Source of the DNA: Stenotrophomonas sp. ISL-67
Lineage (GTDB): Bacteria; Pseudomonadota; Gammaproteobacteria; Xanthomonadales; Xanthomonadaceae
Length of the DNA: 64,000 nt
Direction: 5' to 3'
Assembly (NCBI RefSeq): GCF_018612915.1
Contig: NZ_JAGGRL010000002.1
Location: 1-64,000, forward strand
The notes under the pieces are model-generated. The model did no database searches, had not been told where the DNA came from, and was given only the letters and a program-made list of their open reading frames with translations. The position numbers were made by a program, and so were the translations under genes. Of the stretch, positions 14,358 through 31,341 are shown in pieces. Position 1 is the stretch's first letter; the number at the start of each line of letters is the position of its first letter.

Positions 14358-14413
14358 TCCTGGACCCGGCGGACGCGACGGATGGCTGGCGTTCATGCAC
14401 GCCATCTCGTCCG

Positions 14414-15388
14414 CTATTCGATGACGCTGGCGAAGAACGCCACAACCAGATAGGTCGGCAGCAGAAAGAGCGCCATCAACGCGGTGTTCAGCAGCACCTT
14501 CAGCACCGTATAGACCGGCCGGTTCGCTTGCTTCAGGTGTCCCCCCAAAGTGCGGAGCGGTGCCACGCGTGCGAACAACCAGGTAACCACCCCTTGGGGA
14601 TCTTCGTCCGTGTTCGGCACCGCCATCGCCCTTGCCAGCAACGAGTACAGCCGGTTGAACGAACGCCCGAACAGGTTCATCGGCCGCTCCACGTCGCACA
14701 TCAGGATCAGCCGGGGCGCATCGGAATCGTTCCGCGCGAAATGCGGATAGGTTTCGTCGAACACGAAATCGCCCCCATTGCGCCAGGACACCCGCTGTCC
14801 ATCCACGCAGATGTAGCATTCATCCGACTCCGGCGTTTGCAACCCCATGTGGTAGCGCAACGAGCACGCCAATGGGTCCGAGTGCAATGTCAGTTCCGCA
14901 CCGGCCGGAAGCACTGAAAACATTGCAGCGCGGATGCCCGGAACGCGGCTCAGCAACTTCACGGTGTCCGGGCAAAGCCGCACTGCCGACCCATGCGGCT
15001 CCCCGTACCACTTCAGGTAAAACTTCCTCCATCCTCGTTTGTGGAAGGTACGGAATCCCAGGTCGTGGAATCCGACCGATCCAGGCGCCGAAGCGGCCTC
15101 GAACGCACCGGATTCATGCAACGCAAGGGCTTCGCCCCGGATGCGCCGCCAGTTGCGACGCAACGCGGACACACCTTCCAGGTAGTCCGCCTCCATGACG
15201 GCATGGCGTGCGCTGCGGTGGGTAGCCATGTACAACAGGCAGTTGAACGGCGCGAATACCGGCCAGCTCTTGCGCAGGTATTGGGTGAAGCGCGTGTAGC
15301 GCACAACGCCGCGGAAACGGTAGACATAGGCAACGGCCGTACAGGCGAACAGCAGGATGATCGCGAGCATCAAGGAAGCAAGGTTCAT
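14414..15388 (-). CDS. lpxO: LpxO-like lipid A / aspartyl-asparaginyl beta-hydroxylase family protein
   Basis: Fe(II)/2-oxoglutarate dioxygenase of the family that includes LpxO, which 2-hydroxylates a secondary acyl chain of lipid A at the inner membrane. 324 aa. One hydrophobic helix lies at the N-terminus (about residues 3-23) and one at the C-terminus (about 298-322). The catalytic domain carries the metal-site region LTLHSDPLACSLRYHMGL, then RNGGDFVFDETYPHFARN and the 2-oxoglutarate-binding RLILMCDVER. ATG at 15388 with GAGG 6 bases upstream, 12 bases after a 61-codon frame. LpxO activity is linked to polymyxin and host-peptide resistance elsewhere, which fits the two-component pair upstream. 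Substrate is inferred. Confidence 0.8.
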   Translation of the reverse strand: MNLASLMLAIILLFACTAVAYVYRFRGVVRYTRFTQYLRKSWPVFAPFNCLLYMATHRSARHAVMEADYLEGVSALRRNWRRIRGEALALHESGAFEAASAPGSVGFHDLGFRTFHKRGWRKFYLKWYGEPHGSAVRLCPDTVKLLSRVPGIRAAMFSVLPAGAELTLHSDPLACSLRYHMGLQTPESDECYICVDGQRVSWRNGGDFVFDETYPHFARNDSDAPRLILMCDVERPMNLFGRSFNRLYSLLARAMAVPNTDEDPQGVVTWLFARVAPLRTLGGHLKQANRPVYTVLKVLLNTALMALFLLPTYLVVAFFASVIE

Positions 15389-15400
15389 GTTGAACCTCGA

Positions 15401-15577
15401 TTACCAGCCGTTTCGGCCCCATCTGCCGTCTCGACGCTTCTGCTGCAGGTACATGCAATCACTGTAGGCTTGGGAGCCTTCGCGCACGCCGTACGCGGCG
15501 CATTTGCGGGCGGCCTCTGCTTCATTCCGGTATTCCTCTCTGGGGGCTGACGCGTTCCTGTAAAGAACGTCGAACAT
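15401..15577 (-). CDS. small Cys-pair protein in the lpxO operon
   Basis: Short frame of 58 codons (61 if read from a GTG at 15586) just ahead of the LpxO-like gene. The C-terminal half has the pattern Cys-x3-GVREGSQAYSDC, resembling small periplasmic or lipoprotein families with a Cys...G...Y..C signature. No signal peptide is visible from these starts and no good ribosome binding site is present, so the true N-terminus is uncertain or the gene is truncated. Confidence 0.45.
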   Translation of the reverse strand: MFDVLYRNASAPREEYRNEAEAARKCAAYGVREGSQAYSDCMYLQQKRRDGRWGRNGW

Positions 15578-15622
15578 GACGAACACGATGGGTTCGCCAG
15601 CCCAGATGGTGACCGGACAGAT

Positions 15623-15658
15623 TTAAGCGCTCGTTAGGCGCTTTAGGATTGCGTTAAC
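15623..15658 (-). promoter_or_regulatory. four-half-site operator upstream of the lpxO unit
   Basis: On the plus strand TTAAG, TTAGG, TTAGG and TTAAC start at 15623, 15634, 15643 and 15654, spaced 11, 9 and 11 bases, the same layout as the mipA array. It overlaps the last codons of the kinase gene and lies 46-80 bases before the small frame and lpxO. Likely binding site for the adjacent response regulator. Confidence 0.65.
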
Positions 15659-17025
15659 CGCGCGGGAAACGTTACCCGCACCAACAGCCCACGGCCTTCC
15701 AAGCCGGTGCCTGTCTGAATAACCGCTCGATGCGATGCGACGATGCCGGCTACCAACGACAAGCCGATGCCGATGCCACGCACGGGTGTGTTGGCGACAC
15801 GATGGAACCGCTCGAAAATCGCATCGCGGTCCGCGGCGGGAACACCAGGTCCATTATCGGCGACCTCCAGGAAGACCATCGGCGGATCACCCACCTGCGC
15901 CGGGGTCACGTTGCCACAGCGGATCAGAACATGCCCCCCTTCGGCGGTATAGCGCATGGCATTGTGCAGAAGGTTGCGCAGCAGGATGCCGATCTCGTCG
16001 ATATCGCACATGATGGTGCATGACGCCAGGTTCAGGAAAAGCGAACGCTCGTTCTGGCTCGCATGCACCTCAAACTCCTGCGCGACATGCTGCACCAGTT
16101 GACTGAGGTCCGCCGGCGCGCGCCTTGGCGCCTTGGCACCTGCGTTGATGCGGGCCAGGTCCAGCAGCTGTTCGGACAACCTGGTGCTGTGCTGGGCAAC
16201 AGTCAGCAGCTTCCTCAGGGCCTCATCTTTCTCTTTCGGGTCATCCTCCCGCAGTGCGATTTCGGCCTGCCCCTGCAGGGTTGACAAGGGTGTACGAAGT
16301 TCGTGGGCGGCATCGCCGATAAAGCGCCGTTCTCCCTCGATGGCTTCGTCAAGCTGCTGCAGCACATGGTTGAACGATTCAACCAGGGGGCTCAGTTCCT
16401 TGGGCAGTCCGTCCAGCGGCAGTGGCGTGAAGTCGAAATGCGGTCGGCGATGCATTGCCTCTCCGAGCGCACGCACGGGTTTGAGAGCACTGAGGGTGAC
16501 TATCCACATCGTAATGCCCACAACCACCAGTAACAGGGTTGCCTGCACGACCTCGCCCATTGCCTTGTGGCGCATATCTGCATCCACCACGCTCTGCAGG
16601 TTGCCTACCTGGACGGTCACCCGCCCAGTGCTGTCAGAAGCCGAGTAGACGCGCCAATTCCTGCTCTCGACGTGGGTCGACAATGGACCGTCAACGAAGT
16701 CTGGTCGCAACGCGGTTCGCGGCGCGCTGGGTGTACTGGCCAGCAACCGGCTTCGATCCACCCAGACCTGGAACGCAAGCGGACCGCGGATGCGGTCGAG
16801 TCGAGGCGGCAACGTCAACGAAGGCTCGGTGCGCGAATCGAAGTGGCCGTCAGCGGGAATCGTCACCAGCAGCTGCGTTGCGATTGCCGCCAGCCGCTCG
16901 TCCCAGGTGCTGGTGCGGTTGAGCGACAACTTGGTCAACACAACCGTCACGGCGATCATCCAGAACAGCGCGGTGACCCCGATTATCACCAGCACGAACT
17001 GCGTGTTCAGGGACCTGGATTTCAT
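15643..17025 (-). CDS. sensor histidine kinase, QseC/PmrB-like
   Basis: 460-aa inner-membrane histidine kinase. First membrane helix near residues 10-32, a periplasmic domain of about 130 residues, second helix near 160-182, then HAMP. The catalytic region has AAHELRTPLSTLQGQAEIALRE (His near 238), N-box NLLHNAMRYT and G-boxes NGPGVP and GIGLSL. The ATG overlaps the regulator stop by 4 bases (ATGA), so the two are coupled. The pair is followed by lipid A and outer-membrane genes, which suggests it governs envelope remodelling. QseC and PmrB cannot be told apart here. Confidence 0.88.
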   Translation of the reverse strand: MKSRSLNTQFVLVIIGVTALFWMIAVTVVLTKLSLNRTSTWDERLAAIATQLLVTIPADGHFDSRTEPSLTLPPRLDRIRGPLAFQVWVDRSRLLASTPSAPRTALRPDFVDGPLSTHVESRNWRVYSASDSTGRVTVQVGNLQSVVDADMRHKAMGEVVQATLLLVVVGITMWIVTLSALKPVRALGEAMHRRPHFDFTPLPLDGLPKELSPLVESFNHVLQQLDEAIEGERRFIGDAAHELRTPLSTLQGQAEIALREDDPKEKDEALRKLLTVAQHSTRLSEQLLDLARINAGAKAPRRAPADLSQLVQHVAQEFEVHASQNERSLFLNLASCTIMCDIDEIGILLRNLLHNAMRYTAEGGHVLIRCGNVTPAQVGDPPMVFLEVADNGPGVPAADRDAIFERFHRVANTPVRGIGIGLSLVAGIVASHRAVIQTGTGLEGRGLLVRVTFPARLTQS

Positions 17026-17687
17026 GCCGTAGGCTGACCCACGACGTAGCCCAGCCCATGGACTGTCCGGATCAGATCGTCACCCAGCTTGCGCCGCAAC
17101 TGATGGATGAAGACGGCGATGGTATTGCTTTCCACGCTACTGGTGGTGCCATACACAATGTCATGCAACCGGTCGCGTGTGACCACGTGCCCGGGGCGCT
17201 CGACCAGTGCAACCAATGTTCGAAATTCCTGCGCACTGAGCACGACATCGACGCCTGCTTTCGTCACTACCCGGCGGCTGCGATCGATCTGCACGTCCCC
17301 ATACGTGAACACAGGCACCACCCGCCCTTGGCTGCGGCGGATGACCGAGCGGAGGCGGGCCCACAGCTCATCAAACGGGAACGGTTTGACCAGGTAGTCG
17401 TCGGCCCCCGCATCGAGTCCAGCGATCCGCTCACTCAGCTGGCCACGGGCGGTCAAGATCAGCACGGGTGTGGAATCAGCTCGTGCGCGCATGCCGCGTA
17501 GAACGGCCAGCCCGGAGTCACCGGGAAGCCCGATATCGAGCATGACCGCCGCGTAGACATGATCCTCCAGCGCGGCGCGAGCGCCCGCAGCATCGCCCAC
17601 GAGGTCCACATGCCAGCCACCCTGCCGCGCGCCGCCGCGGATGGTCTCGCCCAGCATCAGGTCATCTTCGACGAGAAGCAGTTTCAT
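17022..17687 (-). CDS. OmpR-family response regulator, QseB/PmrA-like
   Basis: 221-aa regulator with a receiver domain (EDD near residues 8-10, Asp in VMLDIGLPG near 51, Lys in LVKPFPFDEL) and a winged-helix output domain ending with HQLRRKLGDDLIRTVHGLGYVV. The ATG at 17687 gives the usual MKLLLVEDD start. Its gene overlaps the kinase by 4 bases. A TTAG / TTAAG pair with 11-base period lies 67-82 bases upstream, suggesting autoregulation. Confidence 0.9.
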   Translation of the reverse strand: MKLLLVEDDLMLGETIRGGARQGGWHVDLVGDAAGARAALEDHVYAAVMLDIGLPGDSGLAVLRGMRARADSTPVLILTARGQLSERIAGLDAGADDYLVKPFPFDELWARLRSVIRRSQGRVVPVFTYGDVQIDRSRRVVTKAGVDVVLSAQEFRTLVALVERPGHVVTRDRLHDIVYGTTSSVESNTIAVFIHQLRRKLGDDLIRTVHGLGYVVGQPTA

Positions 17688-17753
17688 CGCCTGTCCGCCC
17701 TCATCCTTCCACACGCCCTTTTCACCGGTCGCCGGAACTATGACCCATCCAGT

Positions 17754-17769
17754 TTAGTTTTTCTTTAAG
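17754..17769 (-). promoter_or_regulatory. half of the operator array before the regulator operon
   Basis: TTAG at 17754 and TTAAG at 17765 (plus strand) keep the 11-base period seen in the two complete arrays. The second pair expected 9 bases further from the gene is absent; decayed integrase sequence occupies that place. Confidence 0.5.
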
Positions 17770-17959
17770 GCCATCCAGGGCCATCGCCAGGAGGGTGATG
17801 CCGCGGACGCACAAGGTGACGCAAGCCTACGGAGGGCTGCAGGCCACTGGGGACGAAGAAATGGGCATATACGCCGGAAGGAAACCCTGCACCGTCAACC
17901 CGTTGCTGGAAGACGCCAGACATGGAGCGGGTGAAGGGAATCGAATTAGCCCGCGCCAA
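17765..17959 (-). pseudogene. tyrosine integrase remnant, N-terminal part (outer element)
   Basis: The minus-strand frame contains GVYAHFFVPSGLQPSVGLRHLVR, which aligns with the other remnant (LYARFFVPIDLRAPVGTGYLVRSLG) near 31.1 kb and with the N-terminal segment of tRNA-site tyrosine integrases. Similarity is lost after about 40 codons. It starts beside the left copy of the tRNA-Gly 3' end, the usual place for the integrase of an element inserted there. Probably left over from a second, mostly deleted element. Confidence 0.6.
17923..17945. repeat. left attachment site of the island (tRNA-Gly 3' end copy)
   Basis: A 23-base sequence beginning TGGAGCGGGTGAAGGGAATC is identical to the 3' end of tRNA-Gly (including CCA) at 31268-31290. 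A same-orientation copy 13.3 kb away is what site-specific integration into the tRNA 3' end produces. Confidence 0.9.
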
Positions 17960-18188: not shown

Positions 18189-18491
18189 ATGGATAGCTCA
18201 GAATTTGTCGTCGACAGCGCTGTTTACACCTTTGAAGAGGTGATCCGGGCGGCCCACCGGCTTTCCGGCGCCTGCCATATCGAAGTGGGCCGCCGTCCCA
18301 ATGCACACGCGGTGTTGGTCAGCGCACTGCCAGGCATGGCGGTGCCGGTGGATGCCCGGGACCGATTCTTTACTGACCTGGCCGACGAGAAGCTGCGATC
18401 CCTTATCCGTGCCGAAACCAAGGGCCTGCACGAACAGTTGGTGCATGCCGCGCTGTCTCAGGCGATGCCTGGTGCCGGGTCTGGGGCATGA
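18189..18491 (+). CDS. hxsD: His-Xaa-Ser system protein HxsD
   Basis: 100-aa first gene of a His-Xaa-Ser (Hxs) peptide-modification cluster. Its biochemical role is not established; it is a small cytosolic family found only with HxsA, HxsB and HxsC. It begins MDSSEFVVDSAVYTFEEVIRAA and ends in a helical segment with the FFTDLADEKLRSLIRAET pattern. The ATG at 18189 follows AGGGGATGGGCA and avoids an 18-residue upstream extension with poor coding character. Stop overlaps hxsB by 4 bases (ATGA). Identification rests on size, sequence pattern and gene order. Confidence 0.85.
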   Translation: MDSSEFVVDSAVYTFEEVIRAAHRLSGACHIEVGRRPNAHAVLVSALPGMAVPVDARDRFFTDLADEKLRSLIRAETKGLHEQLVHAALSQAMPGAGSGA

Positions 18492-19981
18492 AGTTCCGCC
18501 CAAGGGACGCCTTCAGAGCGACCGCCGGCTACCAGCTCTTGCCAATGCGCTTCCGCCGCCTACCCTGGGATGGCGACCGAGTGTTCGTATCCTCGATGGC
18601 CGGGGACTGGCTGACGGTGCCCGCTGCCGCGTTCAAAGCCTTCGTTTCGCATGAACTGCCCGATGACTCGCCCTATCTGGCCGACCTACAAGCCCGCCAC
18701 CTCGCCGTCGTCGACGTCAGCAAAAGCTCGCTGGCCCCTTTGCTGAGCCAGTACCGAAGCCGCAAGTCGTATCTGACGGGCGGTCCGGCGCTCCATATAT
18801 TCGTGGTCTCCCTGCGATGCCATCACACCTGCAGCTACTGCCAAGTCTCGAGGCAAGGCGTAAATGCTCAAGCGTTTGACCTGGCCGACTCCCCAGCAGA
18901 ACTGGCGGTGGAAAGACTCTTCGATTGGCCCAGCCCTGAGCTCACGATTGAGTTCCAGGGCGGCGAACCCCTGCTGAACTTTGAGCAGGTCATGCGTATC
19001 ACGCGCCTTATCGTCGCGAGGAACCAGCAAGAAGGCCGGGCCCTCCGATTCGTCTTGGCTTCCACCCTCCACGACCTGACCGAGGCACAGCTCGACTTCT
19101 TGGCCGAGCACCGCTTCAAACTGTCCACGTCCGTGGACGGTCCCGAGTGGCTCCACAACGCAAACCGTCCTCGTCCTGGTCGCGACAGCTATCGGCGGAC
19201 CATTGAAGGCATTGAGCGAGGGCGACGCCGCCTGGGCGACGATGCGGTGTCCGCACTGACCACCTTGACCAAGCTGAGCCTGGCCGTCCCGGAAGAGATC
19301 ATCGACGAATACCGCCAGCTCGGCCTCCACTCCATCTCGCTCCGTCCGTTGAGCCCTTATGGCTTCGCTACGAAGACAGCGAGCCGAACCGGGTATACAA
19401 CCTTGGATTACCTAACGTTCTACAAGAGGGCGTTTGAGCACTTGGTGGCGGTCAACCACTCCGGCTATGCAATGGACGAGTCCTACGCCGCGCTGCTCCT
19501 GTCCCAACTGTTCACGTCGTTTGGCCATGGCTACGTGGATCTGCGCTCGCCGTCCGGTGCGGGGCTGGGGGCGGTCATCTACGACTACGATGGAAGGGTA
19601 TATCCCTCTGATGAGGCGAGGATGCTGGCTGCGATGGGCGACCCGACTTGGTGCCTCGGCGATGTGAGCCAGCCGGTCAGCGCTTGGCTGGAGTCCCCAG
19701 CCATGGCCTCCGTCCTCTACGCTGGGGTCGCTGAGGCGCTACCCACCTGCTCGGACTGCGCGTATGTGCCCATGTGCGGGGCCGATCCCGTGGAGCATTA
19801 CGCCAGGCAGAGGGATACCGTCGGGCACCGCCCCACCAGCGACTTCTGCCAGAGGAACATGGGGCTGTTTGATTTCCTATTGGAGCGCTTTGAGAAGGGG
19901 TCAGCAGAGGACCAGCGGCTGATGCAGCGATGGGCCATGCGCCAAGAGCCAGTTAAGGAGGCGCTTCATGTTGCCGCTTGA
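18488..19981 (+). CDS. hxsB: His-Xaa-Ser system radical SAM maturase HxsB
   Basis: 497-aa radical SAM/SPASM enzyme expected to modify the HxS-repeat protein HxsA; the chemical change is not something I can state. Cluster-binding CxxxCxxC is Cys111, Cys115, Cys118 (CHHTCSYC). The SAM-binding GGE motif (EFQGGEPLLNFE) follows. The C-terminal SPASM region starts at about Cys421 (CSDCAYVPMCG) and continues to a distal Cys (SDFC). Coupled to hxsD by a 4-base overlap and to hxsC by 14 bases, so the three proteins are probably made together. Confidence 0.93.
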   Translation: MKFRPRDAFRATAGYQLLPMRFRRLPWDGDRVFVSSMAGDWLTVPAAAFKAFVSHELPDDSPYLADLQARHLAVVDVSKSSLAPLLSQYRSRKSYLTGGPALHIFVVSLRCHHTCSYCQVSRQGVNAQAFDLADSPAELAVERLFDWPSPELTIEFQGGEPLLNFEQVMRITRLIVARNQQEGRALRFVLASTLHDLTEAQLDFLAEHRFKLSTSVDGPEWLHNANRPRPGRDSYRRTIEGIERGRRRLGDDAVSALTTLTKLSLAVPEEIIDEYRQLGLHSISLRPLSPYGFATKTASRTGYTTLDYLTFYKRAFEHLVAVNHSGYAMDESYAALLLSQLFTSFGHGYVDLRSPSGAGLGAVIYDYDGRVYPSDEARMLAAMGDPTWCLGDVSQPVSAWLESPAMASVLYAGVAEALPTCSDCAYVPMCGADPVEHYARQRDTVGHRPTSDFCQRNMGLFDFLLERFEKGSAEDQRLMQRWAMRQEPVKEALHVAA

Positions 19982-21158
19982 GAGCAAAGCCCTCATCTCG
20001 AACTCGCTCGGCCCGCGGCTTCTGAAAGTAGTCGGGCTCGGTGATTTCCCATCGGCCGTGCTGCCCTACGAGCGTATGGCGCTGGACCTGCGGGGGGCGC
20101 CCGCCGGGTTGATTGGCAGAGAGATGTTGGATCTGCCTTGGGGCGGGATCGTGCAGTCGCCGGATGCGCCGCGTGACCGTGAACGGCCCTACGTCGAGAT
20201 CCTTGGAGACCAGAGGCTGGCCAAGTCAGGGGACGTCATCGAACTGGATCCTCTCCGACAGCGCGTCGCCAGCCGGTATCGGCGCGGGGACAATGGGAAC
20301 GTGCTCTTTGCGACCGAACGATGCAACAGCTATTGCGTTATGTGTTCGCAGCCGCCCAGGCAGGTCCAGGACGATTGGCGGGTTAGCCAGCTTTTGGACC
20401 TAATTGACCTGATCGATGCAGACGAACCGTCCCTTGCGATAAGCGGAGGGGAACCGACCCTGCTCGGAGAAGGGCTCGTGGATGTTGTGAAACGCTGCGC
20501 GTCTGCGCTGCCCGACACCCACGTCCATATCTTGTCTAATGGACGTCTGTTGGACGGTTCGACCCTGCACAGTCGCTTTGAAGGGATCCATCCCAACCTC
20601 AGCTGGGGCATTCCTCTCTACGGCGACCACTACGGGCTCCACGACTACGTGGTCCAAAGCGAGGGGGCGTTCGCTCAGACCCTGCGGGGGCTTTATGCCC
20701 TGGAAGCGGCAAAGCAGCGCATTGAGATCAGGGTTGTGCTGGTCCGGCCTACCTTCGAGCGGCTGCCGGAGATAGCTCGATACATTCAGCGCAACCTGCC
20801 CTTTGTAGAGCACGCGGCTTTGATGGGCATCGAGCCAATCGGGTTCGCCAAGGCGCATCACGCGGACGTGTGGGCGGACCCAGCCGACTTCGGCGCCCAG
20901 CTCGCCGCAGCTGTCAGCGTGTTCGACTCGAGCGGTATCGGAGTGTCGCTCTACAACCTCCCGCTCTGCACCATCGACCGCTCCTTGTGGCCCTATGCCG
21001 CTCAGAGCATCTCGACTTGGAAGAACGACTATTTGCCCGCCTGCGCCAGCTGTTCAGTAAAGGCCAAGTGCGGCGGCTTCTTCTCTTGGGTGACGCCGGC
21101 TTGGACCAGCCGGGCAGTCGCCCCCGTCAAGGAAAGTGAAGCATGTCCAGCGCATTGA
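19968..21158 (+). CDS. hxsC: His-Xaa-Ser system radical SAM maturase HxsC
   Basis: 396-aa second radical SAM enzyme of the cluster. Cys119, Cys123 and Cys126 (CNSYCVMC) bind the catalytic 4Fe-4S cluster; AISGGEPTLLGEG is the SAM-binding GGE motif. A C-terminal cysteine set (Cys359, Cys362, Cys368 in CASCSVKAKC) suggests an auxiliary cluster or zinc. ATG at 19968 has an excellent AAGGAG 7 bases upstream and lies inside the hxsB end; hxsA begins before its stop. Two distinct maturases acting on one substrate is a hallmark of Hxs loci. Confidence 0.93.
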   Translation: MLPLESKALISNSLGPRLLKVVGLGDFPSAVLPYERMALDLRGAPAGLIGREMLDLPWGGIVQSPDAPRDRERPYVEILGDQRLAKSGDVIELDPLRQRVASRYRRGDNGNVLFATERCNSYCVMCSQPPRQVQDDWRVSQLLDLIDLIDADEPSLAISGGEPTLLGEGLVDVVKRCASALPDTHVHILSNGRLLDGSTLHSRFEGIHPNLSWGIPLYGDHYGLHDYVVQSEGAFAQTLRGLYALEAAKQRIEIRVVLVRPTFERLPEIARYIQRNLPFVEHAALMGIEPIGFAKAHHADVWADPADFGAQLAAAVSVFDSSGIGVSLYNLPLCTIDRSLWPYAAQSISTWKNDYLPACASCSVKAKCGGFFSWVTPAWTSRAVAPVKESEACPAH

Positions 21159-21889
21159 TGATTGTCGGCGCGACCCTGGGGGCACTCGGGGCGGAGCCGA
21201 ACCAAAAACCCCAAGACCTGTCGGCACTGTCGGAGATGGACAGCAAATACGCCACCGTCCTGAGTTCGTCGCTGAACTCGGGTCGGCACAACCTCTATGC
21301 CGGGCATCGGAGCCATAGTTCGCATCGCTCCCACAGCTCGCACCGCTCTCATTCATCCGGATCTGGCAGCTCCTACCGCTCTTACTCTCCGCCGGCCACC
21401 TACATACCTCCAGCCCCCGTTCGCAGAACCGCGCCGGCGCCTGCTCCTATCCGTGCACCGATCATACCCACGCAGCGGCAATCTCTCAGCGCACCGACCA
21501 CCTCTGCGCCCACCACAAAGACTTATCGAGCCTCAGAGCGCGATCTAAGCGACTTGGGGGGTCAGCGCCTTTCGGCCGAGCCTGTCATCGATTCTCAGAC
21601 TTCACTGGGGGCGGACGACGCTTCCTCCCCTGACGCCTCGCCCTTCAACAACAACTTTTGGCCAACCCCGACGGCGCAGCCCCCACGCCCGGATGCGGAT
21701 GAGCTCCGGATGCTGATCATGCGCGTCCAAGCCGCCCTCTACTCCAAGGGCCTTGACCCCGGCGCCATCGATGGCGTCATGTCCCAGAAGACGCAGACCG
21801 CGCTGCGCACGTTCCAAAGGCGCTATGGCCTGCAGGTCACCGGCACCATGACGACCCCAACGCTCGACGCGCTTGGTGTTCGACTCTAG
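21143..21889 (+). CDS. hxsA: His-Xaa-Ser repeat protein HxsA (modification substrate)
   Basis: 248-aa predicted substrate of HxsB/HxsC. A hydrophobic N-terminus (MSSALMIVGATLGALGA) may act as signal or anchor. Residues about 55-72 are six consecutive His-Xaa-Ser triplets (HRS and HSS alternating three times), followed by a Gly/Ser/Tyr patch. A Pro/Ala/Thr-rich linker covers about 80-185. The C-terminus (about 190-248) is a peptidoglycan-binding type 1 domain with IDGVMSQKTQTALRTFQRRYGL. The layout suggests an exported, wall-bound protein carrying the modified repeats. Start overlaps hxsC by 16 bases, with AAGGAAA upstream. Confidence 0.92.
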   Translation: MSSALMIVGATLGALGAEPNQKPQDLSALSEMDSKYATVLSSSLNSGRHNLYAGHRSHSSHRSHSSHRSHSSGSGSSYRSYSPPATYIPPAPVRRTAPAPAPIRAPIIPTQRQSLSAPTTSAPTTKTYRASERDLSDLGGQRLSAEPVIDSQTSLGADDASSPDASPFNNNFWPTPTAQPPRPDADELRMLIMRVQAALYSKGLDPGAIDGVMSQKTQTALRTFQRRYGLQVTGTMTTPTLDALGVRL

Positions 21890-22299: not shown

Positions 22300-23115
22300 C
22301 TATTCCGGCGACATGCAGGGCCACAACTCAGTGCCTCTCAAACCAGCTCTCTTTATTGCCCTTACAACGTCGGCGCTTACGATCTTGGCGTTTGCACATC
22401 GATTCTCGACACCGAAGCGCTGAACACTGTGAAACAGAGGGGCATCAGGCGGGGAAATAGCCGCGGGGAAGAATCCGCGATCATGCCAGGGAAAGCGCTC
22501 TCTCCCACAAACCCCGCAGCGAATCCCGCCCACATCGCCCATGGATAATTCGACTGCAGGGCCAAGATCAAGTTGAACTACGTCATCTAACGTCTTTCCC
22601 TTAGGATCCTCGACAGGAAGCGCCGCAATCCCGAGTCCGGAAAGATGTTCTTCCCAGACAGACCTCTGCATAAAGCACGCTTCCTCCACCCAATTGAGCT
22701 TCAAGAATGCGTTTCGGCCCCACTTCAGCGTCCTCTTAACTCGAAAGGGGGCCACTTGGACCGCGCCTTCGCCACACTTTGAGCAGCGCCTACTTACATC
22801 GTAAGTCCGCTCACGATAGGCGAAATCATCCTCCGGCTGCGGATACCCGCTGGCATGCACCACCTTAAGCGCGCAATGAGTAGCGGCATCCACCTCCGCG
22901 GGCGTGAATTGGGTGGTGACTGTCGTCATTCCGTCCCACAAGCGAATCAGACCGCAGACCTCAGTCCAGCCAGGATCGCCTTCCACCACATGACTTACTG
23001 CAAATCCACCGACTTGCCCAGGCGGCACTGGTGGCACAACTTTCAGACCAAGCGACGCAAGCTTGGAGTCGCGTGCCTCAGACCACTCGAAAGTGAAACG
23101 ATATTTAATCTTCAT
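22300..23115 (-). CDS. double-CXXCG motif immunity protein (SitI6-like)
   Basis: 271-aa protein with two CxxCG motifs, CSKCGEG near residue 110 and CGVCGRE near 200, as in the double-CXXCG family described from Myxococcus. Family members there act as immunity proteins for SitA6-type nuclease toxins. It starts 12 bases after the RHS toxin gene, on the same strand, which is the standard toxin-immunity order. No signal peptide, so it would protect in the cytosol. The likely partner is the HHLIEKRF-type C-terminus of the upstream gene. Confidence 0.82.
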   Translation of the reverse strand: MKIKYRFTFEWSEARDSKLASLGLKVVPPVPPGQVGGFAVSHVVEGDPGWTEVCGLIRLWDGMTTVTTQFTPAEVDAATHCALKVVHASGYPQPEDDFAYRERTYDVSRRCSKCGEGAVQVAPFRVKRTLKWGRNAFLKLNWVEEACFMQRSVWEEHLSGLGIAALPVEDPKGKTLDDVVQLDLGPAVELSMGDVGGIRCGVCGRERFPWHDRGFFPAAISPPDAPLFHSVQRFGVENRCANAKIVSADVVRAIKRAGLRGTELWPCMSPE

Positions 23116-23127
23116 ACAGTGATGCTA

Positions 23128-26100
23128 TCAGAGTCCCAGTGCATCAAGAATGGCGGTATGGTTTTGGTAGATCTTCTTCGCAGTCTGCAGGATTTGCTGC
23201 TGGGTTGGTGCTTCACGACCATAGGGGAAAGCCGCACGCCACTGGTTGGTGAAAACTTGATGTTCCGCCTTAGTGACCACAACCGAAAGCATTTCTCCCT
23301 TCTTCACCCCCAACACGTCGGCGAACCTCTTTTCAATCAGGTGATGCACTTGAAGCGATGAGCCTTTGCCCACTGCTCGCCGCAGCGCCGTGTAGCTCCC
23401 GAGTCCAAACGCGCCGGCTCTAGAGAGGTTAGCGAATCCTCTACCCGTCTCCTCTACGCGAACAGCCACCAACACGAACGACGCGACCTTCACCCCACCT
23501 ACCACGGGTGCACCGCCTGGCGAGTTCATCAACGGGACGACGATCCCCTCACTGACGGCATCGAAGTCGGTAAGGCTTCCCTGACCGACGAACCAGTTCC
23601 GTTCGGTAAATGCAGCCGCGATAGCATCCAGCCCCGTCGCCGCCTCCCGCGGGGCGGGAGCAGCTGCGTTCGGGTCATACACTGGAATGCTGCCAGCCGC
23701 GTATTGGGTCGTCTCCACCCGATCACCCGCGAAGCCTCCCGAGTTGCACACTCTTGAGCCGGTCACCTGATCACACGCTCCGGTCGGGTCAGAGAAGCCG
23801 AACGGGTTATTGTTCGCGTAGCGATAACGATTCAGGTTGGGGCCGCCTGATGTACTGGCTGCCAACGGGTCAGGTGAGATGAAGCGGGCCAGCATTGGGT
23901 CGTAGTAGCGACGCCCCATGTAGATGAAACCTGTATCCACGTCGCCTAAATGACCGGAGAAGCCGGGGACATTCGGATCTGGCGGTGAATCAGGCTCGCC
24001 ATAGGGTGACCACAAGTGCCTAGCCAACACAGTGCCGGCTGCGTCGCTGGTCGCCACAAGGTTGTTAAGCGCATCGTGGTGGAGATAGGTCAGCTTGACG
24101 CCAGTGGGCGTGCTGCTGCGGATAGCAACCAGTTGACTTCCGAGATAAATGTAGTCGGAAGTCTCATCTCCAGTCGTGGATTCAATTAGCTCTCCGCCGA
24201 CCAGATGCTGCCAAGTCCTTTCCGCGACCCCGGACGCCCGCACGCGCAATCCAGCACCATCGTAGAAGTAGTCCTCCCCACCGTCGACCGACCTGAGCTG
24301 TGCACCGATGTCGAATAGCAGCTGCTTGCCGTTCTTAAGTGAGAGATTGCCTGCTGCATCGTAAGTGAACGCTTCAACACCACTAGTGTTCTCGTCACGC
24401 AGCAGTTCCAGGCGATTTCGGGAATCGTAATGGAACGTGCGCTCTCTTGCACCCGGCAGACGCATGGATACGATGTTGTCGACCGTGTCATAGCCGAAGG
24501 TGTAGTTGCCGGAACCACCAAAGGCAGGCGCTGACGCCTGCGTTAGGCGATCCAAACGGTCATATCCCAGCGAGATGCGCCCCGGCTCTCCGCGCACGCC
24601 GTCAACGATCTGGGCAATGTTGCCTGAAGGATCGTAGCTATATCTGAGATCCACGACACCAGGTTCGAAGACTCGGCTAGTGACCTGGCGGGCATTCTCT
24701 TCAACTGAACGCTGAATGCCGTTTCCATAGGTCAGCAAAGCAATTTTACCGCTTGGGGAATGGGTTACGTTGCTAACCAACACTCCACCAGCACCATCCT
24801 GCAATCGGACAGCTTCACCAAGCCCATTCAGGCTCTGGTGAACCGAGTATCCGTCGGGGTAATCCGTTCGGACATGTTGCCCTGTGGAGTTGTATCCAAA
24901 TACCAGCGTCCGCGGCTGGCCGCTTCCCACGATGCGACTTTGGCTTACGACAGACCCCAGTGAGTTATACGAACGAGCCGTGACGACCGCCACCCGGCCC
25001 TGATTGAAGACTGTCTCAGACTCAACCTCACCAGCCGCCGAATATGTCAATGTTTGATCGCCGAGCCCGTCCGGATACACGACGGAAAGCAGCCGGTTGT
25101 TTGCGTCGTAGGCGCGCTCAACACGACGCGGGTCAATCTTGGGATCACCTCTGTCGCACGACGTGGGGCTGGGCAAATCAAGCCCGCCCGCACTCCACGC
25201 AATGTTGCCGGCCTGATCGTATCCGAAGACAGTTGATCCCGTCTCGGGCTCAATCACCTTACAGAGCCGGAGGTTCTCGTCGTAGACATAGCGACGGGTG
25301 ACCGTCGGAACCGGATTGTCAGGATTTCCGGGTGCAATCGGCGCGTTCCTGCCGGAAGCGCTGGCACGTGCGAGCACGTCGCCTACCACCGAGAGCACAA
25401 ACTCGGCGTTCCCCAGCCCGACGCCGACGTCCAGCGCCCCACTGGCCCCCGTGCCAATTAGAGCACCGGCACCCGACCTGACCTCCGCACGAGGATCGGT
25501 GGCCGACCAGGCCAGCCTCACGTTGCAAGTAGTCGCCCCTGCAGGAATCTGGCAAGAAGCAGGAGACACGGAGAGAGAGCCAGTCGGCGCAGCAGGGACA
25601 ACGAAAGACCCTGAACCTGCGATGGTGCTATTGGGCTGGCCCACAGGCGAGATGCCGTGAACATGGATCGATTGGCCCGCGCGTTGACGACGAACCTCAT
25701 TGCTCAACGGGATAGAGAAGCGATGGTTGCCGGCCGCGCCGCAGGCGGTCGCCACTGCCGGCTCACTGGACTGATCCGCCTTTCCCGTTGCCAGAATGGT
25801 GCCGACCCCAAACGGACCGCCTCCGTAGACGTGCACGTCAATCGGCGCACTGATGCCCGTAGAGCAAGCCCAGCCATTGATCTCTCCGCTGCTGGTAACG
25901 GCATCAATATTTCCAACGATCCTTGAAGGCGGCCCAGTCACGGTCACTTGGACGTTCGTGCTCTCACCGCCAAACCACTCGACGTTCTCCTCGAGAAGCC
26001 TCCATTGGAAGCCGTAAACCCCAGGAAGCGATGGCGCAACAACATTGAACTCGAAGATCGCCGGTCCCTGTGGAAGCACGTTGTTCGGCATCGGGACACG

Positions 26101-27000
26101 AGCGACGCCCCAGCGGCTGTTGTTCTCGGGATTCCATGAGCCCAATGCATATCCATTGGACGCCGACCAAGTGGTGTTCCCACTATTTACAAACCTCAAC
26201 GTAACTTTGTACGAACGCCCCGCCTCCATGGTCGTCGGAACTTCTTGGCTATACATGACGCCTCTGTTGAGGCGGCCGGTCACCGTGAATATCCCAGCGG
26301 GGCCCGTAGTTCCGAACCGCACTCCATTGCGATTCATCTGCCACTGAATCCCGTGTTCACCGTTCTCGTTGGGTGCGACGGCGTTAACAGTGAAGCCAAC
26401 TGTGCCGCCGGGTGCCACATCATACGGAACAGGTATGTCGCTCACCCCGAAATCGAGCAGATCCCCTTGCGCCTGGGCAAGCCGATGACCGTCCGCTGCC
26501 CGCCAAGTGGTGTTCCCTGTATTACGAAACGTCACCGTTCCGCTAAATGGCGTGCCCCTGTCTGCCGAAACGCGCAGGTTTGAAGAAACATACTCAGCAC
26601 CATCAAAGGGTGCCGGCGGCGCTTCAACCGTAATCCGAACGACTTGGGACTTTACCTGGCGCCTGAACTCATCCCCATCCACATTGCGAATGGCCACAGC
26701 TGTCAGTTGGTAGTCGTAGATGCCCGCCGAAATGCCGTTCTCAGTATGTGTGCCGGCAGCGATCCGACTGACCGCCGTTCCATTTCGGCTCAGCTTGATA
26801 TCGGTCAGATACTCGGCCTTATGACCTGTTCCGATCACGCCAGTGTTGATCTGGAACTGGTAGGTGGCCGGGGCCGTGTAAACCGTCTGCACCGGCCCGG
26901 TCAGCTGCACCCAAGCCTCCGCCTGCGCCGCCTGACACACCAAGAGAACAAACAATCCCAGCAGGGCGGCCACCGCCGCGCGGACTCGTCTAGCGTTCAT
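23128..27000 (-). CDS. RHS-repeat polymorphic toxin with HNH-like C-terminus
   Basis: 1290-aa exported RHS protein. A Sec signal (MNARRVRAAVAALLGLFVLLV...AQAEA) is followed by beta-rich segments, including two NBR1/Ig-like domains (about 150-365, each with the FRNTGNTTW type pattern). YD/RHS repeats run from about 630 to 1090. The core ends at DPLAAS...RYRYANNNPFGFSDPTG, the usual boundary before a variable toxin tip. The roughly 190-residue tip contains HHLIEKRFADVLG and EHQVFTNQWR, matching the SitA6-type nuclease. ATG at 27000 with AAGG upstream is preferred over 27009. The immunity gene follows and a second RHS gene precedes it by 22 bases. Confidence 0.85.
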   Translation of the reverse strand: MNARRVRAAVAALLGLFVLLVCQAAQAEAWVQLTGPVQTVYTAPATYQFQINTGVIGTGHKAEYLTDIKLSRNGTAVSRIAAGTHTENGISAGIYDYQLTAVAIRNVDGDEFRRQVKSQVVRITVEAPPAPFDGAEYVSSNLRVSADRGTPFSGTVTFRNTGNTTWRAADGHRLAQAQGDLLDFGVSDIPVPYDVAPGGTVGFTVNAVAPNENGEHGIQWQMNRNGVRFGTTGPAGIFTVTGRLNRGVMYSQEVPTTMEAGRSYKVTLRFVNSGNTTWSASNGYALGSWNPENNSRWGVARVPMPNNVLPQGPAIFEFNVVAPSLPGVYGFQWRLLEENVEWFGGESTNVQVTVTGPPSRIVGNIDAVTSSGEINGWACSTGISAPIDVHVYGGGPFGVGTILATGKADQSSEPAVATACGAAGNHRFSIPLSNEVRRQRAGQSIHVHGISPVGQPNSTIAGSGSFVVPAAPTGSLSVSPASCQIPAGATTCNVRLAWSATDPRAEVRSGAGALIGTGASGALDVGVGLGNAEFVLSVVGDVLARASASGRNAPIAPGNPDNPVPTVTRRYVYDENLRLCKVIEPETGSTVFGYDQAGNIAWSAGGLDLPSPTSCDRGDPKIDPRRVERAYDANNRLLSVVYPDGLGDQTLTYSAAGEVESETVFNQGRVAVVTARSYNSLGSVVSQSRIVGSGQPRTLVFGYNSTGQHVRTDYPDGYSVHQSLNGLGEAVRLQDGAGGVLVSNVTHSPSGKIALLTYGNGIQRSVEENARQVTSRVFEPGVVDLRYSYDPSGNIAQIVDGVRGEPGRISLGYDRLDRLTQASAPAFGGSGNYTFGYDTVDNIVSMRLPGARERTFHYDSRNRLELLRDENTSGVEAFTYDAAGNLSLKNGKQLLFDIGAQLRSVDGGEDYFYDGAGLRVRASGVAERTWQHLVGGELIESTTGDETSDYIYLGSQLVAIRSSTPTGVKLTYLHHDALNNLVATSDAAGTVLARHLWSPYGEPDSPPDPNVPGFSGHLGDVDTGFIYMGRRYYDPMLARFISPDPLAASTSGGPNLNRYRYANNNPFGFSDPTGACDQVTGSRVCNSGGFAGDRVETTQYAAGSIPVYDPNAAAPAPREAATGLDAIAAAFTERNWFVGQGSLTDFDAVSEGIVVPLMNSPGGAPVVGGVKVASFVLVAVRVEETGRGFANLSRAGAFGLGSYTALRRAVGKGSSLQVHHLIEKRFADVLGVKKGEMLSVVVTKAEHQVFTNQWRAAFPYGREAPTQQQILQTAKKIYQNHTAILDALGL

Positions 27001-27022
27001 AGGCGTCATCCTTGACTTGCGA

Positions 27023-29668
27023 TTAGTTGGCGGATTGGGCGACTTCGGTTGTAAGGCCAAAAGCGTTGCGGGTGATGCTGATCTTGCTTCCGTCGGGACG
27101 AATGATCTGCGCGGGCTTGTGATAGTCCGGCGAATCGAAGGCATCGAAGCGAGTGATGGTCTGATGACCCGCCGGATCTACGACCGTCGTGGTGGCGTTG
27201 CTGCCGTAAGACACAGTGGTTATCAGCAGTCCCTGCTCGCTGTCCTGCGCGGATGAGGTCTTCCGGCCCAAGGCATCGTATTCCTGCCACGTTCCCGAAG
27301 TGACGCTGCTTTCCCGCGAGGGATAGGACGTAAACGTCTGTCGGCCTTCGGTGTCGTAATCGTTCCGAACAAACCGCTGCGTGCTCGCCGGATCATTAGC
27401 ATCATATTCCCGGACCAAGCGCGGCTGCCAAAGCGCGTCAAGGTAGGTTTCCTGGCGACTTGCTCCGTGACTGCTGTCCACCCGCCAGTGCCCAGGGGAG
27501 AGGCCGTATTCGTCCCCCCCCATTTGTCGGAACGAAACGACCGTGCTGGCCCACTGGTTTGCGTCCACGGGAGGCTGGATCTCCCGAGTCCTGCCCATTG
27601 GGTCGTACAAGTAGGACGTCACCCGCCCGAGAGCGTCGGCGGTGGAGGTGATCCAGCCGTTGGCGTCGGCAGTCATCCTGTTGATGCTGCCGTCAGGATT
27701 GATCACACGCTGAGGCACGCCCCGATACCAATCTTCGATTCGAGTCTGGTTCCCCTTTCCATCGGTAACCACACGAACAGTTCCATCTGGCCCATAGGCG
27801 ACGCTTTGCACCAAGGCACCTGCGCGATACACAGCGCTTGGCTTCGCCATCGCGTCATACGTGTATTGAGTGGTTACCTTACCCGTCGCCGCCTCGGTAA
27901 CCGACAGGACTTGGTCCTGAACCCAAGGGCTTGAGGTGTCCGCATGCCCCCTTAGCTCGGCCTTGGTCCCCGATGGACCGACGTAGGTCACTCTGGCGGC
28001 GCGAGCATTTCGGTTGAAGTCTCCATACACCGTGCGGTAGGTATCGCCGTCCTGGGCTGTTTGGTTCTCGGTGAGCGCGGAAAGCGTTCCAGCCAGGAAC
28101 TGACCCGATTGAATGCCCAAGGACCTTCCCACCCTTCTAGCGAAGGGACCAGTTTCAGATCCGAAGGTGTAGGTGTACGTTTCATCTCTCACCAGCTGCC
28201 CAGCCTGGTCCAGCACCTGCCTTTGCAGCAGCTTTCGTTCGTTCAGGCCCGGATCGGCCCCATACCTCTCGCGCACTTGGGTGCCATTTGCCTTGGTCAG
28301 GCTGGACCAGCGGCCACCTCCTGGCAGCTGGAGTTTGTAGGCTCGGGTTGTGAGGATGGGAGCCAGGCCAGGGCCAGTAATCGTGCGCCGCTTCAACGAC
28401 CACGCGTCGTAGTGCGCCGGCTGCAGGCCGTTGCACGGGTCCGAGCGAACAAACAGCTCCATTTCGAAGTCGAATACTCCACGGGCACCCGAAGGTGCAA
28501 CCACGGACATCTGGGTGGCAGGCGGGGCACTTCCCGCCCGGATTTCGCAGCCCCCCTCATCGTCCGCGTGGCGGTAGGGCAATCTGGACCGCAAGCGTCC
28601 GCTGTGGCCATACGTCCAAGCTGAACCGTCAGGCAGGGTCACTTGGGACAGCCCCCCGTCATTCGTGTCGCTGCCGCCCACATAGGCGTAGTACCACACT
28701 CGCCCATTGGCCGTCACGGTGGTCACTCGATCCTGGGCATCGTATGCCAAGTCGATTCGACGGCCATCGCTGGATTCGATTGCGTTGAGCTTGTAGCCGC
28801 TGTAGCTGTAGGTTACCCAGTTCCCGTAGCGGTCCTCCACGCGGGACGCCAAGAGGTAGACGCGCTTTCGCCCTACCCTACGATTGGCTGCTCCGTCATT
28901 AAATTTTGCGGTGGCATAAGGCCTATCGACGCCCCAGTCGAAGAAATACTTCTTGCCGTCGGGGGTGTGCCCGACGAAGGCTTCGCCAGGGTATCCATTA
29001 CGGGTGGCCGCCAAACAGGTGAACCGAGCACGGGAGGCCGTCATCCACTTGGGCGACTCAAGCTCAGGCGACGATGCGTAGGCGGGGTCATCAGGAACCA
29101 GAAGTTCCTCCCCATTACCGCCATGCCACCTCACATCGATTCCGAAGCCGATGTCCGCGTAGCCCCAGGTGTCCAAGAGGGTTGGAGCGGTGTTTACGGT
29201 ACAACGCTGTGTCGTTTGCGCACCGGGTTGCCCCGTGACCCAGCCACTCCCGGTAGTCCAAACGCCGGACATGTGAGGAACAACGATCTCCCAATCGTCA
29301 AACAGCGTTAAGCCGCGCGCCTCGCTGTCGGCGACACCCCGATTGGCAGATTCCACACCGAACCGCCGGGCGACGCTCACAGGGAGGTCGAAGTTTCCGG
29401 GAATCGAAACATCTTCCGTGAAGAACTCCGTGTTCCCATCGAAGCTTGAGGTCCGGTCGCCGAACACTTCATCGGCAGAGATAGCCCCAAGGCTTTGGGC
29501 GCTCTTTACGCGCTTCTCGTATTCCTGGTAGCTGAATAGGCCATCTTGCGCGGACGCTTGAAGCCCGGCCGCCATGAGCACTAAGCCCAGAATGACCCTA
29601 CGGTGATTGAAGGTCTCACTGGCAATGCGGGGTGCCTTGCCCACCCGCCCATCCTTGGCAGAGATCAT
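27023..29668 (-). CDS. RHS-repeat protein, N-terminal companion
   Basis: 881-aa exported RHS protein upstream of the toxin gene. Its N-terminus carries a signal-like segment (RRVILGLVLMAAGLQASA) after about 33 residues. The following region (VSIPGNFDLPVSVARRFG) resembles the start of secreted RHS shells, and YD repeats such as YGNWVTYSYSGYKL and YDPMGRTREIQPP occupy the rest. It stops within the repeats, without the RHS core-end motif, and the next gene starts 22 bases later with its own signal peptide. It may supply half of a cage assembled from two chains. ATG at 29668 is chosen over a TTG at 29698. Confidence 0.8.
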   Translation of the reverse strand: MISAKDGRVGKAPRIASETFNHRRVILGLVLMAAGLQASAQDGLFSYQEYEKRVKSAQSLGAISADEVFGDRTSSFDGNTEFFTEDVSIPGNFDLPVSVARRFGVESANRGVADSEARGLTLFDDWEIVVPHMSGVWTTGSGWVTGQPGAQTTQRCTVNTAPTLLDTWGYADIGFGIDVRWHGGNGEELLVPDDPAYASSPELESPKWMTASRARFTCLAATRNGYPGEAFVGHTPDGKKYFFDWGVDRPYATAKFNDGAANRRVGRKRVYLLASRVEDRYGNWVTYSYSGYKLNAIESSDGRRIDLAYDAQDRVTTVTANGRVWYYAYVGGSDTNDGGLSQVTLPDGSAWTYGHSGRLRSRLPYRHADDEGGCEIRAGSAPPATQMSVVAPSGARGVFDFEMELFVRSDPCNGLQPAHYDAWSLKRRTITGPGLAPILTTRAYKLQLPGGGRWSSLTKANGTQVRERYGADPGLNERKLLQRQVLDQAGQLVRDETYTYTFGSETGPFARRVGRSLGIQSGQFLAGTLSALTENQTAQDGDTYRTVYGDFNRNARAARVTYVGPSGTKAELRGHADTSSPWVQDQVLSVTEAATGKVTTQYTYDAMAKPSAVYRAGALVQSVAYGPDGTVRVVTDGKGNQTRIEDWYRGVPQRVINPDGSINRMTADANGWITSTADALGRVTSYLYDPMGRTREIQPPVDANQWASTVVSFRQMGGDEYGLSPGHWRVDSSHGASRQETYLDALWQPRLVREYDANDPASTQRFVRNDYDTEGRQTFTSYPSRESSVTSGTWQEYDALGRKTSSAQDSEQGLLITTVSYGSNATTTVVDPAGHQTITRFDAFDSPDYHKPAQIIRPDGSKISITRNAFGLTTEVAQSAN

Positions 29669-30999: not shown

Positions 31000-31200
31000 C
31001 TAAGGCGCCATCCCCATCATGGCCGCCACCAGCCGCGCTTGGTCGCCACGGCGAGCACCCAACGAACGGACGAGGTAACCCGTGCCAACGGGAGCTCGAA
31101 GGTCAATGGGGACAAAGAAGCGTGCGTAAAGCACGGCCGAACGCGAAAGCATCAGAGGCTTAGGCAAGATTGATACCTCGATTGATACCTCAAGGGGCAT
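31000..31200 (-). pseudogene. tyrosine integrase remnant, N-terminal part (inner element)
   Basis: The minus-strand frame gives LYARFFVPIDLRAPVGTGYLVRSLGARRGDQARLVAAMMG, the N-terminal arm/SAM-like region of tRNA-site integrases. A TAG interrupts it at 31002 just before the IS30 end, and no catalytic domain (R...HxxR...Y) is found beyond the IS. Position beside tRNA-Gly, reading away from it, is where the island integrase should be. Confidence 0.65.
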
Positions 31201-31267
31201 CGCTCGGAATCATCAATCGGTCTGAATCTTCAACCCAGTCAATCAGTTGCGAACTGAGAGGTTGAAG

Positions 31268-31290
31268 TGGAGCGGGTGAAGGGAATCGAA
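31268..31290. repeat. right attachment site of the island
   Basis: Within the tRNA-Gly 3' end; identical over 23 bases to 17923-17945 in the same orientation. Confidence 0.9.
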
Positions 31291-31341
31291 CCCTCGTCAG
31301 TAGCTTGGGAAGCTACAGCTCTACCATTGAGCTACACCCGC
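31268..31341 (-). tRNA. tRNA-Gly (anticodon CCC)
   Basis: Cloverleaf is complete: acceptor GCGGGTG / CACCCGC, D-arm GCTC / GAGC, anticodon stem GTAGC / GCTAC with loop TTCCCAA (anticodon CCC, reads GGG), T-arm with TTCGATTC, and an encoded CCA. 74 nt. Its last 23 bases form the right attachment repeat of the island, so integration restored a working gene. Confidence 0.95.

What the first reader, a model, noticed from the sequence alone, without database searches (positions are those of the whole stretch)
18189..21889. Complete His-Xaa-Ser (Hxs) radical SAM system on an integrative island
Four overlapping genes encode HxsD, two radical SAM maturases (HxsB, HxsC) and a wall-binding protein HxsA carrying six back-to-back HxS triplets (residues about 55-72) ahead of a peptidoglycan-binding domain. 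Gene overlaps of 4, 14 and 16 bases point to tight co-production. The family is known by name from genome comparison; I know of no settled product structure or function. Its presence on a tRNA-integrated island next to an RHS toxin raises the idea of a surface-competition or envelope role.
Basis: partly seen in the sequence, partly recalled or inferred. Interest (0 to 1): 0.9.

Follow-up and report, generated by a model that had tools for sequence, protein, structure and literature searches.

The report
His-Xaa-Ser peptide-modification operon on island
A complete copy of a known but biochemically uncharacterised bacterial gene set, two radical enzymes that probably rebuild a run of six histidine-x-serine triplets in a predicted wall-binding protein, sits on a 13-kb mobile island inserted at a glycine tRNA gene; the family is not new, but the comparison gives sharp predictions for its unknown chemistry.

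Summary
hxsD-hxsB-hxsC-hxsA lie at 18189-21889 with overlaps of 4, 14 and 16 bases. HxsB, HxsC and HxsA pass NCBI's curated cut-offs; HxsD matches its model below cut-off. HxsA carries (HRSHSS)x3 at residues 55-72 and a PF01471 domain. The island claim holds: exact 23-bp repeats of the tRNA-Gly(CCC) 3' end at 17923-17945 and 31268-31290 bound 13.3 kb with an integrase remnant, at a site nearly empty or differently filled in relatives. The RHS 'competition' idea is weak: RHS matches in 2 of 28 Xanthomonad-type hxs loci. New here: (i) the HxsB model has an RRE-like N-terminus on a CteB/AnSME-like body; (ii) this HxsB lies in one clade without the three tested AuxI cysteines (one member keeps one), with AuxII kept and an invariant Asp; (iii) the repeat's third residue is Ser in 690 of 690 HxsA2 and 169 of 169 HxsA triplets, x being free. 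Best mechanism (inferred, about 0.4): His-to-Ser i,i+2 cross-links (three-residue cyclophanes) made before export. New member of a known kind; product and function unproven.

The parts
18189..18491 (+). hxsD, 100 aa; predicted three-strand, ferredoxin-like small partner protein
18488..19981 (+). hxsB, 497 aa radical SAM/SPASM-like maturase
   Evidence: TIGR03978 532.4 bits; AF2 model closest to CteB and AnSME
18530..18763 (+). HxsB N-terminal RRE-like (peptide-recognition) domain, residues about 15-92
18818..18841 (+). HxsB radical SAM cysteines C111, C115, C118
   Evidence: 34 of 34; 154 of 154
19607..19609 (+). HxsB S374, where AnSME/CteB and the AuxI-keeping HxsB relatives have a cysteine; followed by invariant D375
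19748..19849 (+). HxsB AuxII-type cysteines C421, C424, C430, C454
   Evidence: 33 of 34; 153 of 154 have all four
19968..21158 (+). hxsC, 396 aa second radical SAM maturase
   Evidence: TIGR03977 365.8 bits
20322..20345 (+). HxsC radical SAM cysteines C119, C123, C126
   Evidence: invariant in the 28 sequences aligned
20967..21071 (+). HxsC C-terminal four-cysteine site C334, C359, C362, C368, probably one auxiliary cluster
   Evidence: invariant in the 28 sequences aligned; the cluster itself is inferred
21143..21889 (+). hxsA, 248 aa His-Xaa-Ser repeat protein (substrate)
   Evidence: TIGR03979 135.5 bits
21239..21301 (+). HxsA conserved segment before the block (D33 ... L44 N45 ... N50 x Y52 A53), likely recognition region
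   Evidence: alignment of 28 HxsA; role inferred
21305..21358 (+). HxS block HRSHSSHRSHSSHRSHSS, residues 55-72
21722..21874 (+). PG_binding_1 domain of HxsA, residues 194-244
   Evidence: PF01471 49.5 bits
17923..17945 (+). far attachment repeat of the island (exact copy of the tRNA-Gly 3' end)
   Evidence: mean of 0.00 matches in 100 shuffles
31268..31290 (+). attachment repeat inside the tRNA-Gly 3' end
31268..31341 (-). tRNA-Gly (CCC), integration site
31003..31206 (-). remnant of an integrase start next to the tRNA
   Evidence: PF20172 E 4.6e-5, 23.4 of 27 bits; the aligned DNA in G027 overlaps the start of an intact 514-aa integrase ORF
22300..23115 (-). 271-aa CxxC-type protein just downstream of the RHS gene, candidate immunity protein (inferred from position)
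   Evidence: no Pfam or NCBIfam match
23128..27144 (-). RHS-repeat protein, island cargo
   Evidence: PF05593, TIGR03696
27023..29698 (-). second RHS/YD-repeat protein, island cargo
   Evidence: PF05593, TIGR01643
30041..30376 (-). fragment of an IS30 transposase
   Evidence: NF033563 75.6 bits, below cut-off 80

Best explanation
This is a complete Hxs (His-Xaa-Ser) operon carried as cargo at the far end of a decayed 13.3-kb island that entered the 3' end of tRNA-Gly(CCC) (shown by sequence). HxsB, through its RRE-like N-terminal domain, holds the conserved segment just before the HxS block of HxsA, and HxsB and HxsC, with HxsD as a small partner, modify the block triplet by triplet in the cytoplasm (inferred). 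The most likely chemistry is a cross-link within each triplet between the His ring and the Ser beta-carbon two residues on (a three-residue cyclophane, loss of 2 H per triplet), giving a stiff, His-rich rod (inferred). HxsA would then be exported and tethered to peptidoglycan by its C-terminal domain (inferred from the domain; export in the window's own group is uncertain).
Against: HxsB is no member of the cyclophane-forming families: FxsB 35.8 of 370 bits, YhhB 52.6 of 445. AuxI, the cluster seen to take the electron in SuiB (PMC9012708, passages), has lost its tested cysteines in this HxsB, so the oxidation that a cross-link needs must use another acceptor. A plain C-beta link does not need a Ser hydroxyl, yet Ser was never replaced in the triplets counted. 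Only 12 of 28 HxsA have K/R at residues 2-6 and the window's is not among them, so export is not assured. The RRE reading has no Pfam support. No product has been seen.
Confidence: 0.4

Rival explanations
1. Ser oxidation: HxsB (and/or HxsC) oxidises each motif Ser to formylglycine, as anaerobic sulfatase maturase does, or on to aminomalonate; the His only positions the substrate or later condenses with the aldehyde.
Against: HxsB scores 60.7 of 349.45 bits for AnSME and lacks the tested AuxI cysteines. His at i-2 is as strict as Ser, which simple Ser oxidation does not need.
Confidence: 0.22
2. The product is above all a metal ligand: the HxS block, modified or not, is a periplasmic or wall-bound chelator of copper, zinc or nickel, and the radical enzymes tune or pre-organise the His ligands.
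For: Six evenly spaced His in a Cys-free segment. Noursin, a peptide whose His-to-butyrine cross-link is needed to bind copper, is a precedent (PMC10206099, abstract and passages).
Against: No metal-resistance or metal-transport gene was recognised among the island ORFs scanned. A pure chelator would not need invariant Ser.
Confidence: 0.15
3. Redox-neutral chemistry (for example D-amino acids in the block by epimerisation) by the AuxI-less HxsB, with HxsC doing a separate step.
For: AuxI, the electron acceptor in SuiB, is lost in one HxsB clade (one change, 100/99 support) while AuxII-type and radical SAM cysteines are kept.
Confidence: 0.1
4. The operon is here a non-functional passenger on a decayed island.
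For: The integrase is reduced to remnants and an IS30 fragment is present.
Against: All four frames are open and keep the conserved cysteines and motifs; ten HxsD relatives of 67-95% identity are listed.
Confidence: 0.05

Closest known systems
His-Xaa-Ser (Hxs) system, NCBIfam TIGR03976-TIGR03979 (HxsD, HxsC, HxsB, HxsA), described by Haft and Basu 2011 (recalled; paper not held)
   Same: All four genes, order D-B-C-A as in 27 of the 28 loci L017-L044, HxS repeats and PG-binding C-terminus
   Different: HxsD below its curated cut-off; otherwise an ordinary member
Triceptides / three-residue cyclophane-forming enzymes (XncB, OscB, MscB, HaaB, YhhB)
   Same: Aromatic residue i and partner i+2; both His rings and Ser C-beta are known partners, in different enzymes (PMC11002830, passages)
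   Different: HxsB falls far below those family models and HxsC has at most a weak YhhB match; HxsB lacks the tested AuxI cysteines; here the motif is repeated head to tail
Anaerobic sulfatase-maturating enzyme (AnSME)
   Different: No AuxI cysteines at the tested positions of HxsB; extra N-terminal domain; 60.7 of 349.45 bits
CteB, thioether-forming peptide maturase (5wgg/5why)
   Same: Best structural match over nearly the full length, N-terminal part included
   Different: HxsA has no Cys to make a thioether; tested AuxI cysteines absent in HxsB
HxsA2-type systems on plasmids (Nostoc, Paraburkholderia) and an hxs operon with a 99-aa HxsA on a Leptospira phage
   Same: HxsB, HxsC, HxsD and an HxS block
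   Different: Substrate short, without PG-binding domain, block at or near the C-terminus; substrate gene first, then D-B-C

Membership tests
Hxs system | HxsB above TIGR03978 cut-off | tested here: met
   532.4 vs 370 bits
Hxs system | HxsC above TIGR03977 cut-off | tested here: met
   365.8 vs 267.9 bits
Hxs system | HxsA above TIGR03979 cut-off with HxS repeats | tested here: met
   135.5 vs 121.65 bits; six triplets
Hxs system | HxsD above TIGR03976 cut-off | tested here: inconclusive
   38.6 vs 50 bits, E 1e-9: the cut-off itself is not reached; position and alignment support it
Hxs system | HxsB and HxsC modify the HxS block of HxsA | not testable with these tools
   needs expression and mass spectrometry
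Three-residue cyclophane-forming enzymes (triceptides) | membership of HxsB by family model | tested here: not met
   FxsB 35.8/370, YhhB 52.6/445, GrrM/OscB 47.7/310 bits
Three-residue cyclophane-forming enzymes (triceptides) | aromatic-x-X3 motif in the precursor | tested here: met
   H-x-S in every triplet counted
Three-residue cyclophane-forming enzymes (triceptides) | ring-to-C-beta cross-link in the product | not testable with these tools
   needs MS/NMR
AnSME | membership by family model | tested here: not met
   60.7 vs 349.45 bits
AnSME | two auxiliary clusters (AuxI and AuxII cysteines) | tested here: not met
   three aligned AuxI positions without Cys, AuxII-type cysteines present
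RRE-bearing RiPP maturases | PqqD-like N-terminal domain | tested here: inconclusive
   E-E-E-H-H-H order and alignment to CteB from its residue 1 speak for it; no PqqD-type Pfam hit in 34 members; domain not folded or searched alone
tRNA-integrated genomic island | direct repeat of the tRNA 3' end bounding the insert | tested here: met
   23 of 23 bp, mean 0.00 in 100 shuffles
tRNA-integrated genomic island | integrase next to the tRNA | tested here: inconclusive
   only a remnant, PF20172 E 4.6e-5 below gathering score; intact integrase at the same tRNA in G027
tRNA-integrated genomic island | variable or empty site in relatives | tested here: met
   rimK-GDSL gap from under 0.3 kb to 41 kb in 37 same-genus genomes; in G002 only about 45 bp lie between the tRNA and the SnoaL-side sequence

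The most novel reading that the evidence does not exclude
HxsB, an AuxI-less maturase with an RRE-like domain, and HxsC together turn a protein-borne (HxS)n tract into a ladder of His-Ser imidazole cyclophanes, a rigid poly-imidazole rod tethered to the cell wall. Because the usual electron acceptor AuxI is gone from this HxsB clade, the chemistry would use a new electron route (for example back to the radical SAM cluster, or through HxsC's own auxiliary cluster).
Probability: 0.25. Interest if true: 0.85.

Novelty: new member of a known kind. Interest (0 to 1): 0.5.

Why it matters
The Hxs family is widespread but patchy (15 of 398 genomes drawn from the phylum, own included; 347 of 72,556 plasmid records at E 1e-40, 316 of them Klebsiella), yet I found no product in print in the searched open-licence library. 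The strict H-x-S rule, the AuxI-less HxsB clade and the RRE-like domain turn an open question into three mass-spectrometry outcomes that can be told apart (-2 Da ring link, -2 Da carbonyl, +14 Da). If the ring link holds, it would be an unusual protein-scale rod of cross-linked histidines on mobile DNA.

Tried and rejected

Anti-phage defence: PADLOC gave only viperin matches for HxsB and HxsC (E 6e-4 and 2e-8), which I read as radical SAM superfamily likeness, and nothing for the other five proteins scanned.

RHS-linked competition role: RHS matches in 2 of 28 loci.

General enrichment of hxs next to tRNA genes: tRNAs lie within the held flanks of 6 of the 25 hxs loci scanned (L030, L032, L033, L034, L036, L037), not clearly above a rough estimate of mine (about 4; no call), and none of those tRNAs had an exact repeat of 14 or more bases of its last 50 in the locus. 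L030 is notable for lying 3 kb from a tRNA-Gly(CCC) with the same 23-mer, but its far repeat was not found.

A second HxsA in the own genome (76% complete): only a weak match of 23.5 bits over the C-terminal part of the profile.

Left integrase remnant (window 17768-17959): no Pfam match on its own; it rests on DNA likeness to the G027 integrase region and on 43 of 58 identical bases with the right-hand remnant.

Searches for a described product or for 'HxsABCD', 'HxsA2' and similar words found none. Three papers mention the system without characterising it (PMC9062424, PMC8446631, PMC6537148; passages). PMC10352776 was searched for Hxs words and has none.
Full report
WHAT IS THERE. Three of the four pass NCBI's curated cut-offs and HxsD does not (38.6 of 50 bits, E 1e-9). 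HxsA has HRSHSSHRSHSSHRSHSS at residues 55-72 and PF01471 at 194-244. In 20,000 shuffles of HxsA the longest HxS run was 2; six of its seven His lie in the block.

THE ISLAND. The last 23 bases of tRNA-Gly(CCC) (31268-31290) recur exactly at 17923-17945; with up to three mismatches allowed there is no other match in the window and a mean of 0.00 in shuffles. Between them lie hxsDBCA (starting 243 bp from the far repeat), a 271-aa CxxC-type protein, two RHS-type genes, an IS30 fragment below cut-off and, next to the tRNA, an integrase remnant (PF20172, E 4.6e-5, below gathering score). In all 37 same-genus genomes searched, rimK and the GDSL-autotransporter gene share a contig, with gaps from under 0.3 kb (for example G007, G012, G020) to 41 kb (G027), and 20.9 kb here. 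A tRNA-Gly(CCC) was found by this gene in the ten other genomes fetched there. In G027 the same 23-mer bounds a different insert of about 38.8 kb (positions), with an intact 514-aa phage-type integrase ORF beside the tRNA (PF00589 48.8 bits). In G002 the tRNA end lies about 45 bp from sequence that in the window is at 12384, so about 12.4-31.3 kb is inserted DNA here. The segment just left of the far repeat (17784-17945) matches the same integrase-start region of G027 but gives no Pfam hit by itself. I read this as two elements inserted in tandem, the hxs island being the one next to the tRNA.

SPREAD. Eight of 37 same-genus genomes (own included) carry hxsB at E below 1e-250. In the seven others hxs is on a different contig from the rimK-GDSL pair. 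The close relatives G015 (83% complete), G014 and G002 (95-97% identity in rimK and the GDSL gene) have no hxsB match. Among 14 hxs flanks of up to 8 kb clustered (L018-L025, L027, L028, L040, L041, L043, L044), one integrase cluster occurs in 6 loci and one relaxase cluster in 4. Pfam supports the integrase in 5 of the 6 (L019, L021, L022, L024, L043; the sixth, L025, is broken into two ORFs, of which the one scanned has no match) and MobA/MobL in 4 of 4 (L019, L025, L040, L043). hxsB lies on 347 of 72,556 plasmid records at E 1e-40 (316 Klebsiella, 277 conjugative) and, over at least 80% of its length, in 2 of 50,697 phage records. In a draw of 398 genomes from the phylum (own included) 15 matched, 14 over cut-off.

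THE SUBSTRATE. In 28 HxsA (window plus 27 of the 38 loci; L038, where no hxsA was found, and the non-Xanthomonad loci L045-L054 were left out) the blocks have 5-7 triplets; x is S 85, R 66, A 10, Y 8 times, and the third residue is Ser in 169 of 169. In 120 HxsA2 proteins (the 120 listed of 145 hits, query included) x takes 12 different residues and the third residue is Ser in 690 of 690; 119 of 120 end two or three residues after the block. These counts cover the longest run of H-x-x triplets in each of a set of related proteins, so they are not independent events. In Bacteroidetes and Synergistales HxsA the tract is often interrupted. HxsA has no Cys in 28 of 28; 2 of 120 HxsA2 have one. Before the block a segment with D33, L44, N45, N50, Y52 and A53 is conserved. 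HxsA2 looks like a Sec substrate (K/R in residues 2-6 in 108 of 120), whereas only 12 of 28 HxsA, and not the window's, show that charge, though the window's start is as hydrophobic; so export here is open.

MECHANISM. Shown: family membership, integration, strict H-x-S rule in the sets counted, cysteine pattern. Inferred: HxsB holds HxsA through the RRE-like domain; HxsB and HxsC act on the block in the cytoplasm; HxsA is then exported. Because both His and Ser are fixed and x is free, I favour a bond between them. Published cyclophane enzymes make i,i+2 bonds, with His C2 as ring partner (HaaB, ScaB, YhhB) or with Ser C-beta as the other partner (MscB) (PMC11002830, passages). The main objection is AuxI: SuiB passes its electron to AuxI (PMC9012708, passages), and this HxsB has no Cys at the tested AuxI positions. 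Either HxsC does the oxidation or the electron goes elsewhere. Ser oxidation as in AnSME is the main rival. Both give -2 Da per triplet, so mass alone cannot decide.

LITERATURE. The library searched holds three papers with the His-Xaa-Ser name: one maps HxsB and HxsC as clusters in a similarity network (PMC9062424), one lists hxsABCD among the genes of a P. aeruginosa ST277 isolate (PMC8446631), one notes the system at a variable locus in V. parahaemolyticus (PMC6537148); I saw passages only. The founding paper (Haft and Basu 2011) is not held and is cited from recall.

VERDICT. Real, correctly identified, and on a real island. It is an ordinary member of a known orphan family; the interest lies in the family's unknown chemistry, which the comparison here makes testable.

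Noticed in passing
window 12385-17922: A further inserted stretch left of the hxs island: MlaA-like lipoprotein, MipA, an LpxO-like hydroxylase and a QseBC/PmrAB-like two-component pair, with a decayed integrase start at about 17784-17920; suggests tandem insertions at one tRNA.
   Followed up: partly
L054 (Woesearchaeota), HxsB-like 1439-2779: The reverse cysteine pattern: AuxI cysteines kept, all four AuxII cysteines gone. No ORF with three or more HxS was found in the held DNA of L053 or L054.
   Followed up: partly
L026, contig NZ_LDIG01000004.1: A 'Paenibacillus dendritiformis' 5.4-kb contig carries an hxs operon nested among Luteimonas sequences; likely contamination.
   Followed up: no
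L077, Leptospira phage KF114877: An hxs operon with a 99-aa HxsA on a phage genome, followed by a gene annotated 'mobilome CxxCx(11)CxxC protein' that has no Pfam match.
   Followed up: partly
L075, L080; 316 Klebsiella plasmid records: hxsDBCA is common on Klebsiella plasmids; in the two records opened (both conjugative) it lies near insertion-sequence genes, and in one a chloramphenicol-resistance gene lies about 1.6 kb upstream.
   Followed up: partly
L035 and L037: Lysobacter niastensis has two hxs operons about 100 kb apart on one contig, sisters in the tree.
   Followed up: no
L049 and L050; also L051: Loci with two different HxS proteins beside one set of maturases.
   Followed up: no
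L052 hxsB 3055-4422: An in-frame stop in a Synergistaceae hxsB; left out of the alignment.
   Followed up: no
L038: hxsD and hxsB present but no hxsC or hxsA detected.
   Followed up: no
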